From JAYEMH01 sp034717985 [NCBI: Candidatus Ratteibacteria bacterium] (lineage in GTDB: Bacteria; CAZDME01; JAYEMH01), in assembly GCA_034717985.1 (NCBI GenBank), contig JAYEMH010000036.1:24583-31183 (forward strand): a stretch of DNA of 6,601 nucleotides. The letters are read 5' to 3'. The notes under the pieces are model-generated. The model was not told the DNA's origin, did not search any database, and worked only from the letters and a program-made list of their open reading frames with translations. This document shows, piece after piece, positions 1 through 6,555 of the stretch (the stretch's first letter is position 1; each line of letters starts with the position of its first letter). The position numbers and the translations under genes were made by a program.

Positions 1-1421
1 AGAAATACTCCCTCTTCAGTCCGAAATTTAATGGTTACCTCCCCGAGAGCATCTTTTCCCTTGGTAACCGATTTGACACTATAATCAACCAGCTCTCCGG
101 TTAGCCCGGTAATCTTATCAATGGTTTTGTAAACAGCGTCAATCGGCCCGTCTCCCTTGCTTGTTTCTTTAACCTCTTTATTTTCTTTTTTAAGAACCAC
201 GGCCGCTTGGGGAATTATTCCTGTGCCGCTGGTAACGTGTAAACTGACCAGGGAAAAAGTTTCCGGCAGGGAAATTAACTCACCTTCGACGATTACCTCT
301 AAATCTTCGTCGTAAATTTCCTTTTTCTTATCAGCTAATTCTTTAAACTGTTCAAAGGCTTTTTGAAAATCCCCGGGAGGAAGCTGATAACCTAATTCCG
401 CTAATCGCTCCTGGAAGGCGTGGCGGCCGGAATGTTTGCCTAAAACCAAGCGGCTCATCGCTAATCCAATGGTTTCCGCCCGCATAATTTCGTAGGTCGT
501 CGGTTCCTTCAAAACACCATCCTGATGAATGCCTGCTTCATGGGCAAAGGCGTTGGCTCCAACAACGGCTTTATTAGGCTGTACCGGAATACCGGTGAGA
601 TGGCTAACCATCCGGCTGGTTTTATAAATTTCCCGGGTAGTAATGCCGGTCTTGAAATTAAAGAAATCCCGGCGAGTGGCAACAGCCATGACTACCTCCT
701 CCAGAGAAGTATTTCCGGCTCTTTCTCCGATGCCATTAATAGTGCATTCTATCTGACGGGCACCGTTAACTATGGCCGAAAGAGAATTGGCTGCCGCCAA
801 ACCTAAATCATTATGACAGTGAACGCTGATTACCGCCTGATTAATATTTTTCACGTTTTTTCCGATTGTTTTAATTAAATTACCGAATTCCTCCGGCATG
901 GTGAAACCAACCGTATCGGGAATGTTAACTGTTCGGGCACCAGCCTCAATCACCGCCTCGACCACCTCACAGAGAAAATCAATATTACTTCTTCCGGCAT
1001 CTTCCGGAGAAAATTCCACATCAGCAACACATTTTTTAGCCAGTTTCACCGCTTTAACCGCATTTTTTATCACTTCTTCCCGGCTCATCTTTAATTTATA
1101 CTGAAGATGAATATCTGAGGTGGCAATAAAGGTGTGGATACGCCTCTTGGCCGCTTTTTTTAAGGCTTGAGCCGCAGATTCAATGTCTTTATCAATCGCT
1201 CTGGCCAAACCACAAATGATAGGACCCTTTACTTCTTCAGCGACGGCTTTAACAGCTTCAAAGTCCCCGGGCGAAGAAACAGGAAAACCGGCCTCAATTA
1301 TATCCACCTTTAACCGGGCCAGCTGCCTGGCAATCTCCAGTTTTTCCTTGACGTTTAAACTAGCTCCCGGAGATTGCTCTCCATCTCGAAGCGTTGTATC
1401 AAAAATTATTATTTTATCCAT
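1..1421 (-). CDS. leuA: 2-isopropylmalate synthase, partial (3' end beyond window)
   Basis: Catalyses the first committed step of leucine synthesis, condensing acetyl-CoA with 2-ketoisovalerate to 2-isopropylmalate in the cytoplasm. I translated 473 codons by hand with no stop. The N-terminal TIM-barrel domain carries the family signature [12 protein letters not shown] at residues 8-19 (catalytic Arg12, metal ligand Asp13), the metal-binding HCHND at 201-205, [11 protein letters not shown] at 232-242 and HEAGIHQDG at 294-302. The C-terminal part enters the leucine-binding regulatory domain (about residue 385 onward), including GDGPIDAV at 423-430. The family is usually a little over 500 residues, so roughly the last 35-50 are missing through the window edge, not mutation. 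It lies 43 bp downstream of ilvC and uses the same pathway intermediate pool. ATG at 1421 places the signature at the usual distance from the N-terminus. An in-frame ATG at 1451 would add ten residues. Neither has a strong ribosome binding site. Confidence 0.97.
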
Positions 1422-1433
1422 AATTATTCTTTT

Positions 1434-1460
1434 ACGTTTCCCGTCTAACATTTCCCGTCT
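1434..1460. repeat. Two-copy 14-bp-period direct repeat in ilvC-leuA spacer
   Basis: ACGTTTCCCGTCT at 1434-1446 is repeated as ACATTTCCCGTCT at 1448-1460, with one mismatch and one base between copies. The block can also be read as four degenerate heptamers (ACGTTTC, CCGTCTA, ACATTTC, CCGTCTT) sharing C, T and T at positions 2, 4 and 6. It fills most of the 43-bp spacer upstream of leuA, on the stretch where a ribosome binding site would be expected. Function is unknown. The unit differs from those in the other two spacers. Confidence 0.7.
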
Positions 1461-1464
1461 TTAA

Positions 1465-2457
1465 TTATTTCCTCATCCAGGGCATCATTTTGCGAAGCTT
1501 CCGGCCGATTTCCTCAAGCGGGTGTTTTTCCTCTTTTTTTTCCGCCGCCCGGAAAACCGGACGGTTGGCCTGGTTCTCGGCAATCCACTCCCGGGCAAAC
1601 TCACCGCTTTGAATCTCACGCAGAATCTTCTTCATCTCCCGGCGGGTACTCGCAGTAATTATTCTCTTTCCCCGGGTTAAATCGCCATATTCAGCCGTAT
1701 CGCTTACCCGGCTGCGCATGCCCATAATACCATTTTCATAAATCATATCGGTAATAAGTTTCAACTCGTGGAGACATTCAAAATAGGCCACTTCCGGTTG
1801 ATAGCCGGCGGCAACTAAAGTCTCGAATCCCGCCTTGATTAATTCGGTAACCCCGCCGCAGAGAACCACCTGTTCGCCAAACAAATCTGTCTCTGTTTCC
1901 TCGGCAAACGTAGTTTCAATCACCCCAGCCCGTCCACCGCCGATCGCCCTGGCATAAGCCAGCGCTAACTGCTTGGCTTTTCCCGAAGGGTTCTGGTAAA
2001 CGGCCATCAAACAGGGCACTCCCTTTTTTTCCTCATACATCCGGCGAACTAAACTGCCCGGGCCCTTAGGGGCGATCATAAAAACATCAACATCGGACGG
2101 AGGAATAATCTGGTGAAAATGAATGTTAAAACCATGGGAGAAAACCAGGGCCTTTCCCTTTTTTAAATGAGGTTCGATACTCTGTTTATAGACTTTAGGC
2201 TGGACCGGGTCCTGGGTTAGAATTTGAATAATCTGAGCCGCCTTGGCCGCTTCAGCCGCCGAAACAGGCTTGAACTTATCTTTTACCGCCTGAACATAAT
2301 TTTTTGTCCCCTTGAGTTCGGCAATAACCACCTTAATGCCGCTATCGCGAAGATTCAAAGCCTGACCTCGTCCCTGAATACCATAACCAATAATTGCTGC
2401 TGTTTTGTTTTTCAAAAGTTTAAGTTTGGCGTCTTTATCATAATATACCTTAACCAT
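1465..2457 (-). CDS. ilvC: Ketol-acid reductoisomerase (class I)
   Basis: Isomerises and reduces 2-acetolactate or 2-aceto-2-hydroxybutyrate to the dihydroxy acids of the valine and isoleucine pathways, using Mg2+ and a nicotinamide cofactor. At 330 residues it has the short class I length. The Rossmann domain begins with GYGIQG at 24-29. SHGFNIHF at 107-114 and APKGPG at 129-134 supply the conserved His108 and Lys131. The knotted C-terminal domain has [10 protein letters not shown] at 187-196 (metal ligands Asp191, Glu195), ECLHELKL at 227-234 (Glu227, Glu231) and Ser252 in the substrate site. The protein ends in the typical MMPW region. The cofactor loop at 46-54 reads AELKGTKNY. Aligned without gaps to Azotobacter KARI as I remember it (GLRAGSASV), the phosphate-binding Arg is Leu48, the two Ser are Thr51 and Asn53, and Glu47 precedes them, so NADPH preference is doubtful. 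ATG at 2457 has an AGGAGG six bases upstream. The catalytic assignment is firm; the cofactor inference is not tested. Confidence 0.98.
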
Positions 2458-2469: not shown

Positions 2470-2482
2470 ATGTTGCTCCGCA

Positions 2483-2510
2483 GTCCATAGACCATAGTCT
2501 ATAGTCCATA
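2483..2510. repeat. Heptamer tandem repeat (GTCCATA)x4 in ilvN-ilvC spacer
   Basis: Four consecutive 7-bp units are visible: GTCCATA, GACCATA, GTCTATA, GTCCATA, two identical and two with a single change each. A second block in the opposite orientation lies at 2569-2589 (TATGGAC, TGTTGAC, TATGGAC). Between them is a 9-bp direct repeat TTTCTATCT at 2524-2532 and 2536-2544. In RNA from the minus strand, positions 2506-2490 can form a short stem of seven pairs (one G-U) with a three-base loop, about 20 bases before the ilvC ribosome binding site. Function is unknown. Confidence 0.85.
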
Positions 2511-2592
2511 GTAAAATCTTAAATTTCTATCTGTTTTTCTATCTACCGACTACTTGTGTCCGTTATGGTATGGACTGTTGACTATGGACTAT
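2501..2592. repeat. Perfect 12-bp inverted repeat spanning ilvN-ilvC spacer
   Basis: ATAGTCCATAGT at 2501-2512 is the exact reverse complement of ACTATGGACTAT at 2581-2592, with 68 bases between the arms. The arms belong to the two oppositely oriented heptamer blocks. One arm begins three bases after the ilvN stop and the other ends about 30 bases before the ilvC ribosome binding site, so the transcript could fold into a stem separating the two messages. The arms are AT-rich with a long loop and no adjoining U tract on the ilvC side, so this is not a standard intrinsic terminator. An RNA-stability or processing role is only a possibility. Confidence 0.75.
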
Positions 2593-2594
2593 TT

Positions 2595-3068
2595 TTACTC
2601 CTTACCGACGGCAATCCTGCCCGAGCGCACCAATTCGGTAATACCAAAAGGCTTAAGCAGCTCGATAAACTCCTTCACCTGCTTACCTGCACCAAGCAGT
2701 TCAATAGTTAAAAGATCCTTGCCCGCATTTAATATCTTAGCTTCATTTCCCTCGGCAATCTGCTCAATCTCAGGACGGGTTTTGCTGTCAGCTTTTACCG
2801 TAACTAAAATTAACTCCCTTTCAACAAACCCTTTTTTAGTTAAATCCTGGACAGTAATGATATCTATCAGCTTATTCAGCTGTTTGCTGACCTGTTCTAA
2901 AATGCGGTCGTCTCCTTCAACCACAATGGTCATCCGGGAAACACTCGGGTCTTCGGTTTCTCCGACGGTAAGACTGGTGATGTTAAAACCCCGGGCGCTA
3001 AAAAGCCCGGCAACGCGGGCTAAAACTCCGAAGCGGTTTTCTACTAAGACGGAGATGGTATGTTCCAC
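2595..3068 (-). CDS. ilvN: Acetolactate synthase, small regulatory subunit
   Basis: Binds and activates the IlvB catalytic subunit and confers valine feedback inhibition. The first 70 or so residues form an ACT domain with the motif ENRFGVLARVAGLFSARGFN; the rest matches the C-terminal domain of small subunits, ending near ELVRSGRIAVGKE. I chose GTG at 3068 (157 residues): GAGGAGG lies five bases upstream, and the protein then begins MEHTISVLVEN, matching family N-termini. With this start Asn11, Gly14 and Asn29 fall exactly at the positions known from E. coli IlvH valine-resistance mutants, so the valine site appears intact. An in-frame TTG at 3089 would add seven residues and overlap the ilvB end by 8 bp, but it would place the ribosome binding site inside the gene. 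The gap to ilvB is 13 bp, consistent with translational coupling. The symbol could equally be ilvH. Confidence 0.95.
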   Translation of the reverse strand: MEHTISVLVENRFGVLARVAGLFSARGFNITSLTVGETEDPSVSRMTIVVEGDDRILEQVSKQLNKLIDIITVQDLTKKGFVERELILVTVKADSKTRPEIEQIAEGNEAKILNAGKDLLTIELLGAGKQVKEFIELLKPFGITELVRSGRIAVGKE

Positions 3069-3073
3069 TTTAT

Positions 3074-3080
3074 CCTCCTC
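3074..3080 (-). promoter_or_regulatory. ilvN ribosome binding site, decides GTG start
   Basis: GAGGAGG on the minus strand, five bases before GTG at 3068 and overlapping the region immediately after the ilvB stop (3084-3082). Its position makes the upstream TTG at 3089 unlikely and implies that ribosomes ending ilvB arrive directly at the ilvN start. Confidence 0.85.
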
Positions 3081-3081
3081 T

Positions 3082-4746
3082 TTAGGCAAGTCCTGAAATC
3101 ATCTCTTTAAGCGAAGCGCCGGCTGGCACCATCGGAAAGACGTTCTCTTCCTCAACAACCTTGAAATTCAAAAATACCGGCTTATTTATCTTCAGGGCCT
3201 TTTCAATGGCCGGTCTAACTTCCTCTTTCTTGTTTATCTCAATGCCTACCGCCCCAAAGGCCTCGGCCACCTTAACAAAATCAGGATTGGTCAAACAGGT
3301 GCCGGAATATCTCTTCCTATAAAAAAGCTCCTGCCATTGCCTGACCATACCCAGACAGGAATTATTCAGTATGGCAACCTTTACCGGCGCCTGAGAACCA
3401 ACCGCCGTAGTTAACTCCTGAATGTTCATCTGGATACTACCGTCACCGGCAATATCAAAAACAATTTTGTCCGGCCTGCCCAATTGCGCCCCAATAGCCG
3501 CCGGAAAGCCATAGCCCATTGTCCCCAAACCTCCGGAAGAAAGAAAGGTCCTCGGCTGGGCATATTGATAAAACTGGGCCGCCCACATCTGGTTCTGTCC
3601 CACCTCAGTGGTAATAATCGCCGCGCCCTTAGTCGCTTCATAAATCTGCTCGATTACATACTGCGGTCTAATATCCTGGCCGTCGTTTTTATAGGTAAGC
3701 GGATATTTTTCTTTCCAATCCTGAATTTTTTTCTGCCATTTCTCAATTGAAGGCGGGGCAATTTTTTTGTTCATCGCCGCTAAAATTCTCTTCACATCTC
3801 CGACAATCGGAATGTCAGCTTTAATATTTTTGCTGATTGAAGTGGGATCGATATCAAGATGGATAATCTTCGCCTGAGGAGCAAAGTCTTTAACCCGGCC
3901 GGTTACCCGGTCATCAAAACGCGCCCCGACGGCAATAATCAAATCTGACTCCATAATGGCGTGATTAGCATATTGAGTGCCGTGCATCCCCAGCATACCC
4001 AAAGAAAGTTTATGATTGGAAGGAAAGCCGCCTAAACCAAGGAGGGTAGTCGTAACCGGAATTCGGGTTTTTTCGACAAATTCTTTTAGTTCCTGATTAG
4101 CCCCGGATATAATCAGCCCGCCGCCGGCATAAATTATCGGCCTTTTCGATTCGGCAATAGCCAGAATTGCCCGCTTGATCTGTCCGGGATGACCGTCATA
4201 GGTGGGATGATAAGTGCGTATATCTATTTCATCCGGATAATTAAACTCGGCTTCGGCCATACTTATATCTTTAGGCACATCAATCAGTATCGGACCGGGC
4301 CGTCCGCTCCGGGCTAAATAGAAGGCTTCTTTGATAATCCGGGCAAAATCCTTAACATCCTCTACCAAATAGTTGTGTTTAGTTATCGGCCGGGTAATTC
4401 CAGTAATATCGGCCTCCTGAAAAGCGTCGTTACCGATCATCCTGGTCGGCACCTGACCGGTAATCGCCACCATCGGAATAGAATCCATATAGGCGGTGGC
4501 AATACCGGTAACCAAATTGGTCCCTCCCGGACCCGAGGTAGCAATACAAACACCCACCTTGCCGGTTGCCCGGGCGTAACCGTCAGCGGCGTGAGCGGCC
4601 GCTTGTTCGTGACGGGTTAGAACAAACCTTATCGGAGCCTCAAAAAGCTCATCAAAAATAGGCAGAACTGACCCACCGGGATAGCCAAATAAAATCTCCA
4701 CCTTTTCTTTTATTAAAGATTTAACTAAGATTTCTGCGCCCGTCAT
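3082..4746 (-). CDS. ilvB: Acetolactate synthase, large catalytic subunit
   Basis: Thiamine diphosphate and FAD enzyme that condenses two pyruvates to 2-acetolactate, or pyruvate with 2-ketobutyrate for isoleucine; the first common step of the pathway. At 554 residues it is full length. The N-terminal pyrimidine-binding domain has [10 protein letters not shown] at 20-29 and [15 protein letters not shown] from 45, with catalytic Glu47, then SGPGGTN. The central FAD-type domain includes [11 protein letters not shown]. The C-terminal ThDP-binding domain has GDGS at 434-437 and [12 protein letters not shown] from 461, giving metal ligands Asp435 and Asn461. Cys464 stands where an aromatic residue is more usual; one transition separates TGT from [11 protein letters not shown] and the length indicate an anabolic AHAS, not a catabolic pyruvate oxidase relative, and the adjacent regulatory subunit agrees. 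ATG at 4746 has GGAG eight bases upstream. It is separated from ilvD by a 98-bp repeat-filled spacer. Confidence 0.98.
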
Positions 4747-4758: not shown

Positions 4759-4768
4759 AATATGTTTT

Positions 4769-4840
4769 CCAGTTAGCCGGTTTTCCAGTTTACCGGCTCA
4801 CCCGCTAACCGGAGCACTGGCTAACCAGTTAACCCGTTTC
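4769..4840. repeat. Nine-unit degenerate octamer tandem array in ilvD-ilvB spacer
   Basis: Reading in steps of eight from 4769 gives CCAGTTAG, CCGGTTTT, CCAGTTTA, CCGGCTCA, CCCGCTAA, CCGGAGCA, CTGGCTAA, CCAGTTAA, CCCGTTTC. Position 1 is C and position 4 is G in all nine units; positions 2 and 6 are C and T in eight. The consensus is CCnGyTaA. The best-conserved part is a 16-bp doublet at 4765-4780 and 4781-4796 (14 of 16 identical). ACTGG at 4816-4820 and CCAGT at 4825-4829 form a five-pair hairpin with a four-base loop, and CCGG cores offer others. The array occupies 72 of the 98 intergenic bases. Function is unknown. Confidence 0.85.
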
Positions 4841-4844
4841 TCTA

Positions 4845-6497
4845 TTACCTAAAAATTGCTCCGGTGCTGGCCGAGCCCACCAATCGGGCATAGCGTTTAA
4901 GATAGCCGGTTTTTATCTTGGGCTCCGGAACCTGCCAGAGACGGCCTCTTTCCTCTAATTCACCCGGCATAAGATTCAAATCAAGTTTTCTGGCTGGAAT
5001 ATCAATGACAATTTCATCGTTATCTTCAACTAAAGCAATCGGCCCTCCGGCGGCTGCCTCCGGGGAGATATGCCCGATACAAGGACCTCGCGTTCCTCCG
5101 GAAAAACGTCCGTCGGTAACTAAAGCTACTTCCTCCCCCAAACCCATACCGACTAAGGTAGAAGTAGGCAGAAGCATCTCTCTCATTCCCGGACCGCCCT
5201 GCGGTCCTTCATAACGGATAACCACCACATCGCCTTTTTTTATCTGATTTTTCAAAATTGCTTCCATCGCTTTTTCTTCCGAATCAAAAACCATGGCTGT
5301 CCCCTTAAATCTTTTAGCCTTATCGCTGACCGCCGCTTGTTTGACCACCGCCCCATCCGGAGCCAAAGTTCCGAAAAGAACGGCAATCCCCCCTTCGGGA
5401 AAAACCGGTTCTTCCAGGCTGTGAATTATCTCCCGGCTGTAAATCACCCCTCTTTTAGCCAGTTCTTTTACTTTTTCACCGCTGACGGTTAAACCATTTT
5501 CTAATTTTGTCAAAAGAGACTGCATTAAGCCGGGTATGCCGCCGGCGTCATCTAAATCTTCCATAAAATAATCTCCCCCCGGACGAAGACTGGTAAGCTG
5601 AGGCGTCTGGCGGGATATCTCATCAAACAAGCTCAGAGGCAATTTTATACCGGCTTCATGGGCAATGGCGGTAAGATGCAAAGCAGTATTGGTTGAACCG
5701 CTTAAAGCCATATCAGCTCGAATGGCATTGCGAAAATTCTCTTCTTCCATAATCATCCGGCTGGTAATATTTTTTCTGACGAGTTCCATAATTTTTTCAC
5801 CACTCTCCTGGGCAATTCTTTTCTTTTTAGCCGATACCGCTAAAGCGGTCGCGCAGCCGGGCAAACTCATTCCCATCACTTCGGTCAGACAGGACATAGT
5901 GTTAGCCGTGTACATCCCCTGGCAGGAACCCGCCCCGGGACAGGCCTCAATGGTTAAATTTTCCAACTCTATCTCATCGATTTCTCCCTTTTTAAAACGA
6001 CCAATGGCTTCAAAGGTATCGCGAACCAAGGAAAGTTTTTTCATTTTATATCGCCCGGAAAGCATTGGGCCGGCTGTTACCACGATGCAGGGTATATCCA
6101 GACGGGCGGCGGCCATTAGCATCCCCGGGGTAATTTTATCACAATTGGTCAGCAGGACCAATCCGTCAAAAGCATGAGCCATAACCACTGATTCAACCGC
6201 ATCGGCAATCAACTCCCGGGTCGGCAAAGAATAATGCATCCCCTGATGTCCCATGGCTATCCCATCGCAAACTCCGGGAATACCAAAGAAAAAAGGAAGC
6301 CCCCCCCCGACGGAAATTCCTCTTTCAATCCAGCGTTCCAAATCACGCATCCCCACATGTCCGGGGATGAGGTCACTGAAACTGGTGGCAACACCGATAA
6401 AAGGTTTAGAAAAATCTTTTTTTCTAAGGCCGGTGCCAAAAAGCAGGGCGCGGTGAGGAGCTCGTTCTACTCCTTTTTTTGTTACATCACTGCGCAT
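4845..6497 (-). CDS. ilvD: Dihydroxy-acid dehydratase
   Basis: Iron-sulfur enzyme that dehydrates 2,3-dihydroxyisovalerate and 2,3-dihydroxy-3-methylvalerate to the 2-keto acids preceding valine and isoleucine. The 550-residue product opens [19 protein letters not shown], typical of the family. Signatures are [12 protein letters not shown] from 76, NCDKITPGM from 118 (Cys119, Asp120 and Lys121, the carbamylated Lys of homologues), [16 protein letters not shown] from 186, and the second family signature [11 protein letters not shown] at 459-469 with the probable general base Ser466. Cys77, Cys119 and Cys192 are candidate cluster ligands. Gly46, in IPGHV, occupies the site where several well-studied [2Fe-2S] members have a TPCN cysteine; E. 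coli IlvD has the same PGHV form. ATG at 6497 is preceded by GGAGG five bases upstream; the in-frame GTG at 6509 would add four residues and is unlikely. It is the first gene after the promoter. Residues 64-66 are encoded by nine consecutive G. Confidence 0.98.
6300..6308 (-). repeat. G9 homopolymer inside ilvD
   Basis: Nine G on the coding strand (nine C on the plus strand) encode Gly64-Gly65-Gly66 as three GGG codons, shortly followed by a T6 run that encodes part of a Phe stretch. The reading frame is intact. Such runs are prone to replication slippage, transcriptional slippage and sequencing error. Confidence 0.9.
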
Positions 6498-6502
6498 GTT
6501 TT

Positions 6503-6507
6503 CCTCC
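6503..6507 (-). promoter_or_regulatory. ilvD ribosome binding site, decides ATG start
   Basis: GGAGG on the minus strand, five bases before ATG at 6497. The alternative GTG at 6509 overlaps this motif, so it cannot use it, which supports the shorter protein. Confidence 0.88.
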
Positions 6508-6555
6508 ACAAATGACGGTTAAAATCTCCACTTTATTAAACCTGGAAGAGAATGT

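What the first reader, a model, noticed from the sequence alone, without database searches (positions are those of the whole stretch)
2281..2340. IlvC cofactor loop lacks phosphate-binding residues and carries Glu: possible NADH-using KARI
Seen: the loop after the second Rossmann strand (residues 46-54) reads [10 protein letters not shown] gap-free comparison with the Azotobacter KARI loop as I remember it (GLRAGSASV) replaces the Arg by Leu48 and the two phosphate-contacting Ser by Thr51 and Asn53, and puts Glu47 at the strand end. Known: most KARIs prefer NADPH, with this Arg and Ser contacting the 2'-phosphate; acidic residues at this place in Rossmann folds favour NADH, and a few natural NADH-preferring KARIs are known. 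Inference: this enzyme may be NADH-preferring or bispecific, which would fit an anaerobe with surplus NADH. Lys49 and Lys52 could still bind the phosphate, so this is not certain.
Basis: partly seen in the sequence, partly recalled or inferred. Interest (0 to 1): 0.6.

Follow-up and report, generated by a model that had tools for sequence, protein, structure and literature searches.

The report
Likely NADH-using branched-chain amino-acid enzyme
A housekeeping enzyme of valine, leucine and isoleucine synthesis from an uncultured bacterium carries an NADH-type signature where most of its kind grip NADPH, and among sampled relatives in the same phylum this signature goes almost entirely with the absence of oxygen-respiration genes.

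Summary
IlvC (window 1465-2457, minus strand) is an intact-looking class I ketol-acid reductoisomerase (KARI) whose loop after strand beta-2 reads E47-L-K-G-T-K-N53, with Leu in place of the usual Arg. It most probably prefers NADH. In PMC5940873 Table 3, both natural enzymes with an acidic first loop residue (Tp, Ua) prefer NADH, as do four of five natural enzymes without loop Arg.

Relatives add evidence. Of 263 Omnitrophota genomes read, 195 are acidic at 47 (Arg48 in 2) and 68 are not (Arg48 in 68). An oxygen reductase occurs in 56 of 68 Arg-type but 2 of 195 acidic-type genomes, PntB in 33 and 6. A tree-based test supports correlated evolution; a stricter paired test is underpowered and not significant. 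Planctomycetota agree, with an exception.

Not shown: kinetics, a cofactor complex, or the window organism's physiology (no genome held). Its two loop lysines are rare (2 of 194), so bispecificity stays open. NADH-type KARIs are known; I found no report of the two-residue switch tracking oxygen respiration.

The parts
1465..2457 (-). ilvC, class I ketol-acid reductoisomerase, 330 aa
   Evidence: NCBIfam NF004017 528.7 bits (cut-off 336) and TIGR00465 444.6 bits (cut-off 226.15); Pfam KARI_N and KARI_C over cut-off; H108, K131, D191, E195, E227, E231 and S252 present in the window and invariant in a 54-row alignment
2320..2334 (-). strand beta-2 of the Rossmann domain, residues 42-46 (KVVIA)
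   Evidence: AlphaFold model, block pLDDT 97; codon coordinates
2299..2319 (-). seven-residue beta2-alphaB cofactor loop, residues 47-53 (ELKGTKN)
   Evidence: loop frame as in PMC5940873 Table 3
2317..2319 (-). Glu47, proposed acceptor for the adenosine ribose hydroxyls of NADH
   Evidence: first residue after beta-2; aligned with Glu237 of an S-adenosylhomocysteine hydrolase
2314..2316 (-). Leu48, where canonical KARIs carry the phosphate-binding Arg
   Evidence: aligned to Arg of 8upq; Arg48 in 2 of 195 acidic and 68 of 68 non-acidic Omnitrophota loops
2595..3089 (-). ilvN, acetolactate synthase small subunit (pathway neighbour)
   Evidence: NF008864 203.6 bits, cut-off 119
3082..4746 (-). 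ilvB, acetolactate synthase large subunit (pathway neighbour)
   Evidence: TIGR00118 865.7 bits, cut-off 538.35
4845..6509 (-). ilvD, dihydroxy-acid dehydratase (pathway neighbour)
   Evidence: TIGR00110 753.4 bits, cut-off 618.15
3..1451 (-). leuA, 2-isopropylmalate synthase, cut by the window end (pathway neighbour)
   Evidence: open frame; name from my reading of the translation, no family search run; tblastn partners at the same place in relatives

Best explanation
This is a working class I KARI that most probably prefers NADH. Shown: the fold-level layout, the catalytic residues, and a loop with Glu at the first position after beta-2 and Leu instead of Arg. Inferred: Glu47 accepts hydrogen bonds from the 2' and 3' hydroxyls of the NADH adenosine ribose and repels the 2'-phosphate of NADPH; Leu48 removes the main phosphate clamp; Asn53 holds the ribose side as Ser does elsewhere. 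Also inferred: the acidic (E-L) and Arg (Q-R) loops are two states of one switch, the acidic state belonging to lineages without oxygen respiration, where NADH is plentiful and NADPH supply is narrow, and the Arg state to oxygen-respiring lineages. The window's organism is predicted to lack oxygen reductases.
For: Characterised precedents: Tp DIPSSEN (74-fold NADH), Ua ETEILGGNKNPS (152-fold), Do QLEGDAY (NADPH n.a.), Af LPEWDKAT (13-fold) (table in PMC5940873). E47 directly follows beta-2 and aligns with the Glu of an S-adenosylhomocysteine hydrolase, an NAD enzyme. Positions 47 and 48 covary: Arg48 in 0 of 32 acidic and 40 of 49 non-acidic rows, 2 of 195 and 68 of 68 in Omnitrophota; six independent pairs on well supported branches, none opposed. 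PntB in 4 of 7 Arg-type versus 0 of 44 acidic genomes of the first set, then 29 of 61 versus 6 of 151 in the genomes not yet looked at. Heme-copper oxidase family over cut-off in 49 of 68 versus 3 of 195; cytochrome bd 17 of 68 versus 2 of 195; either (heme-copper at 260 bits or more) 56 of 68 versus 2 of 195. Correlated-evolution likelihood test LR 59.2, p 4e-12. In 15 genomes checked, one full KARI each except G014 with two, so the acidic-loop enzyme is the only KARI found in those that have it.
Against: No kinetics and no cofactor-bound model. Lys49 and Lys52 together are rare in acidic loops (2 of 194) and could restore some NADPH use. Hs-KARI lacks Arg and is bispecific, and engineered Ec and Se variants keep the first Arg yet prefer NADH, so the loop rules are not absolute. 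The strict paired test on well supported branches is not significant: 5 pairs, on average 2.4 the same way, 2.6 without difference, 0.0 opposed (1 of 200 pairings held an opposed pair). 12 of 68 Arg-type genomes show no oxygen reductase. One of 10 acidic Planctomycetota has a strong oxidase (G466). Glucose-6-phosphate dehydrogenase was in 2 of 53 genomes, both acidic-type.
Confidence: 0.8

Rival explanations
1. The enzyme is bispecific: Glu47 favours NADH, but Lys49, Lys52 and Thr51 supply enough positive charge and hydrogen bonds to use NADPH about equally well.
For: Both lysines are present in the window and this pair is rare among acidic loops (2 of 194), so the window may be atypical; bispecific natural KARIs with acidic loop residues exist (Ia, Ms, Hs).
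Against: The bispecific Ia and Ms keep an Arg in the loop and have the acid one place later; the acid-first natural enzymes Tp and Ua are listed as strongly NADH-preferring.
Confidence: 0.15
2. The enzyme still prefers NADPH, the phosphate being bound by Lys49, Lys52, Thr51 and backbone amides at the helix start.
For: KARI loops are versatile, and Sac-KARI with an acidic second loop residue still prefers NADPH about 20-fold.
Against: Sac-KARI keeps an Arg; here no Arg remains, the two lysines are not conserved in acidic loops, and acidic-type genomes seldom carry PntB (6 of 195).
Confidence: 0.05
3. The link between loop type and oxygen respiration is shared ancestry or genome size rather than selection for a cofactor: a few respiring lineages happen to carry Q-R loops.
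For: Both traits cluster on the tree; the strict paired tests are not significant; genome size was not controlled; genomes are mostly uncultured assemblies of unstated completeness.
Against: Likelihood tests on the best KARI tree favour correlated change (PntB LR 30.9; COX1 LR 39.5; oxygen reductases LR 59.2); simulated unlinked traits reached the observed correlation in 1 of 2428 and 0 of 677 runs; a flagellin control was not associated (LR 5.7, p 0.22), though with only 9 positive genomes it is a weak control; Planctomycetota point the same way (1 of 10 versus 22 of 40, p 0.014 uncorrected).
Confidence: 0.25

Closest known systems
Tp-KARI (Thermacetogenium phaeum), loop DIPSSEN
   Same: Seven-residue loop, acidic first residue, aliphatic residue in place of Arg, Asn last; listed as NADH-preferring 74-fold
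   Different: Other middle residues (P-S-S-E against K-G-T-K); full sequence not compared here
Do-KARI (Desulfococcus oleovorans), loop QLEGDAY
   Same: Leu in place of Arg and Gly at the fourth loop position; listed as NADH
   Different: Gln instead of Glu at the first position, Asp instead of Thr at the fifth
Ua-KARI (uncultured archaeon), loop ETEILGGNKNPS, PDB 4xdy named from recall
   Same: Glu as first loop residue, no Arg; NADH 152-fold
   Different: Twelve-residue loop
Canonical NADPH class I KARI, e.g. Se-KARI loop LREGSSS
   Same: Same fold, catalytic residues and loop length
   Different: Arg and two Ser that contact the 2'-phosphate (passages) are Leu, Thr and Asn here
S-adenosylhomocysteine hydrolase NAD domain
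   Same: Glu in the aligned place after beta-2; works like it in the proposed ribose contact
   Different: Different enzyme family; only the Rossmann half is alike (about 100 aligned columns)

Membership tests
Class I ketol-acid reductoisomerase | KARI_N and a single KARI_C domain, about 330 residues | tested here: met
   Pfam hits 15-178 and 184-327 over cut-off; NF004017 and TIGR00465 over cut-off
Class I ketol-acid reductoisomerase | Mg2+-binding acidic residues and catalytic residues | tested here: met
   D191, E195, E227, E231 (numbers as in PMC8615647 passages), plus H108, K131, S252 present
Natural NADH-preferring KARI | Acidic residue in the beta2-alphaB loop in place of NADPH phosphate-binding positions | tested here: met
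   E47 at the first loop position, as in Tp and Ua; strictly it is next to, not on, the Arg position
Natural NADH-preferring KARI | No Arg left in the loop | tested here: met
   ELKGTKN; four of five Arg-less natural loops in the table are NADH-preferring, Hs is bispecific
Natural NADH-preferring KARI | kcat/KM higher with NADH than with NADPH | not testable with these tools
   Needs purified enzyme
Omnitrophota acidic-loop KARIs | Nested among Omnitrophota KARIs on a tree built without the loop | tested here: inconclusive
   Inside a 60-row set with SH-aLRT 99 on the 130-row tree, but no starred set holds it on the 270-row tree

The most novel reading that the evidence does not exclude
In this part of the bacterial tree KARI carries a two-residue redox switch, E47-L48 (NADH) against Q47-R48 (NADPH), that has flipped repeatedly with the loss or gain of oxygen respiration and of proton-driven transhydrogenase. 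NADH would then be the ordinary KARI cofactor of large anaerobic lineages, and the view that natural NADH use is a rare trait of extremophiles would reflect which enzymes were sampled.
Probability: 0.5. Interest if true: 0.75.

Novelty: new member of a known kind. Interest (0 to 1): 0.58.

Why it matters
[quoted passage not shown] PMC5940873 (passage) says the native NADH-utilising KARIs then known came from thermophilic, acidophilic or halophilic microbes. Here a loop of the NADH type is the majority state of a phylum and tracks absence of oxygen respiration, which offers another reason, redox supply, and a simple test with two codons: E47 GAA to a Gln codon and L48 CTC to an Arg codon are each one base away.

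Tried and rejected
Searching the window's own genome: none is held, so its oxygen reductases, PntB and second KARI copies could not be checked. Reading the primary papers: Cahn 2015 is not held and Brinkmann-Chen 2014 was seen only as cited; the kinetics come from the table in PMC5940873. Glucose-6-phosphate dehydrogenase as an NADPH marker: 2 of 53 genomes, too rare to use. Idea that Lys49/Lys52 are a conserved phosphate site: rejected, since position 49 is mostly Glu or Pro and 52 mostly Pro in acidic loops. Idea that the acidic loop arose once: the acid state needs 11 to 12 changes on the trees. Paired tests restricted to well supported branches were underpowered for the loop-lifestyle link. 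No fold search, no cofactor docking and no second structure job was run. The intergenic inverted repeat gave no Rfam match.

Choices made after seeing data: the 260-bit line for a heme-copper oxidase in Omnitrophota and 300 bits in Planctomycetota were set after the scores were seen; at the curated cut-off the Omnitrophota figures are 49 of 68 against 3 of 195, and in Planctomycetota 33 of 40 Arg-type and 2 of 10 acidic genomes have some match over cut-off. The three acidic Omnitrophota matches below 260 bits (G065, G077, G194; 188 to 211 bits) may be nitric-oxide-reductase relatives; that was not tested. Rows left out: 22 of 285 Omnitrophota genomes have no loop in the table (11 without any match, 8 without a match at 1e-20, G106 and G118 with fragments lacking the loop, and G015, whose Q-R loop is known from L018 but was not entered). 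Two of 263 short rows were left out of the tree tests (261 rows). In the 130-row tree one duplicate row was dropped. One of 195 acidic loops with a gap was left out of the residue counts.

Full report
What is there. The window holds ilvD, ilvB, ilvN, ilvC and a leuA-like frame in a row on the minus strand (the leuA name is my reading of the translation). The ilvC product has 330 residues, passes the curated cut-offs for ketol-acid reductoisomerase (KARI) and has the class I layout. The residues that bind magnesium and act in catalysis are present. It aligns without gaps to the canonical L-R-E-G-S-V-S of 8upq. An AlphaFold model made with 53 relatives (mean pLDDT 94.4) ends beta-2 at residue 46 and starts helix alpha-B at 52, which puts Glu47 directly after the strand.

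Whose gene. No genome is held for the window. The five-gene order is kept in L001, with 65 to 76% identity per gene. On a 130-row tree built without the loop the window lies in a set of 60 rows with SH-aLRT 99, while the 270-row tree has no starred set that holds it. It is probably an Omnitrophota bacterium or close to it.

What characterised enzymes say. PMC5940873 was seen in passages and its section 10 with Table 3 in full. Natural loops with an acid first, DIPSSEN (Tp) and ETEILGGNKNPS (Ua), are listed with 74- and 152-fold NADH preference. Five natural loops lack Arg: Tp, Ua, Af and Do are listed as NADH enzymes, Hs (LDDKSPH) as bispecific. Loops with the acid one place later and Arg after it (LERQGDS, LEREGKS, LEREGNS) are bispecific or prefer NADPH. 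Engineered Ec and Se variants keep the first Arg and still prefer NADH, so Arg alone does not decide. By this table ELKGTKN falls with the NADH enzymes, closest to Tp (acid, aliphatic..., Asn) and Do (Leu for Arg, Gly fourth).

A structural parallel. The KARI Rossmann half resembles S-adenosylhomocysteine hydrolase. Taking one such protein from a relative's genome (L097, confirmed by Pfam), both a profile comparison and a pairwise alignment put Glu47 opposite its Glu237. From general knowledge, the acid at this place in NAD-binding Rossmann folds binds the adenosine ribose hydroxyls.

The two loop types. In the window plus 80 named loci, 32 of 81 are acidic at 47 and none of these has Arg48; 40 of the 49 others have Arg48, the rest Tyr, His or Gln. 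Thr51 and Ser or Ala46 go with the acidic type. I then read the loop in 263 of 285 Omnitrophota genomes drawn by the tool: 195 acidic, of which 2 have Arg48 (L191, L198), and 68 non-acidic, all with Arg48, mostly Q47-R48. The acid state changes about 12 times on the 130-row tree; in 6 independent pairs on well supported branches loss of Arg follows the acid in 5 or 6, never the reverse. In the 15 genomes there is one full KARI each, except G014 with two, so the acidic enzyme does the whole job where it occurs among them.

A genome-level test. In 53 genomes I first noticed that PntB, the membrane transhydrogenase that makes NADPH, was over cut-off in only 4, all with Q-R loops. I then searched all 285 (39 positive) and read the remaining loops. 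In the 212 genomes not used for the first look, PntB is in 29 of 61 Arg-type and 6 of 151 acidic-type genomes (Fisher p 2.6e-13, uncorrected for kinship). One of the six is the E-R hybrid G231 and another (G091) is a 47.5-bit fragment. I chose heme-copper oxidase and flagellin as controls for lifestyle and gene content. The oxidase turned out to be the stronger partner: 49 of 68 against 3 of 195 at the curated cut-off, 48 of 68 against 0 of 195 at 260 bits or more, a line set after seeing the scores. Cytochrome bd, searched as an attempt to break the pattern, is in 17 of 68 and 2 of 195; either oxygen reductase is in 56 of 68 and 2 of 195. Among genomes without any oxidase-family match PntB still differs, 10 of 19 against 6 of 192. 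Flagellin is not associated (0 of 68 against 9 of 195, p 0.12), but with 9 positives it is a weak control.

Kinship. On the best KARI tree with the loop removed, likelihood models with linked change beat unlinked ones: PntB LR 30.9, p 3e-6; oxidase LR 39.5, p 6e-8; any oxygen reductase LR 59.2, p 4e-12. Simulated unlinked traits matched the observed correlation in 1 of 2428 runs for PntB and 0 of 677 for oxygen reductases; runs with extreme counts had been set aside. These tests take one tree as given. The stricter test that uses only well supported branches had 5 pairs: on average 2.4 go the expected way, 2.6 show no difference and 0.0 the opposite way, with 1 of 200 random pairings holding one opposite pair; it is not significant. 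For PntB the same test gives 1.3 of 5, with 4 of 200 pairings holding one opposite pair. Genome size was not controlled.

Second phylum. In Planctomycetota 95 of 246 genomes had a match. For the 50 best-scoring I read the loop and searched the oxidase: 1 of 10 acidic and 22 of 40 Arg-type genomes have a match of 300 bits or more (p 0.014, uncorrected). G466 is a clear exception, acidic with a 496-bit oxidase. Seven Arg-type genomes have none.

Fit with what is known of the phylum. In passages of PMC10066038 the Omnitrophota classes Gorgyraia and Velamenicoccia are predicted to be mainly obligately anaerobic acetogens, while other classes hold most cytochrome c oxidases; the term ketol-acid does not occur there.

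Conclusion. The enzyme most probably prefers NADH, by a known kind of loop change. What seems new is how common the acidic loop is in one phylum, how tightly residues 47 and 48 switch together, and how closely the switch follows oxygen respiration. Searches for print reports (open-licence PubMed Central only) showed none of this; from PMC8615647 I saw passages and the discussion, from PMC12674515 and PMC4518329 passages.

Noticed in passing
window 2482-2592: Imperfect inverted repeat (22-nt arms, 82% complementary) in the ilvN-ilvC gap; the transcript strand folds with z -4.57. The same motif stands just upstream of ilvC in L103 (888-991) and right after a PF05635 (23S rRNA intervening sequence protein) frame in L001 (10387-10740), so it may be a relic of a small mobile element.
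   Followed up: partly
L191 (G231) and L198 (G230), residues 47-48: Hybrid E-R loops (AEREDSANY, AERGGTPNF) in Omnitrophota, possible intermediates between the two loop types; G231 also has PntB.
   Followed up: partly
L015, L024, L060, L062: Acidic loops (AEAKGSANW, AETKGANW, AELNEARR) in Nitrospirae and a Desulfitobacteriaceae MAG, placed among Leu-type loops and away from the Omnitrophota set: likely separate origins.
   Followed up: partly
L042, L047, L049, L052, L054: A third loop type, S-T-R-x-G-T-P-N-Y, in anammox-related Planctomycetota.
   Followed up: no
window ilvC residues 24-31: The glycine-rich turn reads GYGIQGRG instead of the usual GYGSQGHA; I27 is in 7 of 32 acidic and 3 of 49 other rows, R30 in 7 and 5. 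It resembles the GYGxxGRG of S-adenosylhomocysteine hydrolase.
   Followed up: no
window 4764-4795: Tandem pair of 16-nt repeats (88% alike) in the ilvB-ilvD gap.
   Followed up: no
G085 (L175, L332) and G279 (L351, L362): Two Omnitrophota genomes with two full KARI genes each, all four with Q-R loops.
   Followed up: no
Planctomycetota draw: Only 95 of 246 genomes match the window KARI at 1e-20, and many of the weaker ones are only 32-46% identical, so other KARI types or other routes may be common there.
   Followed up: no
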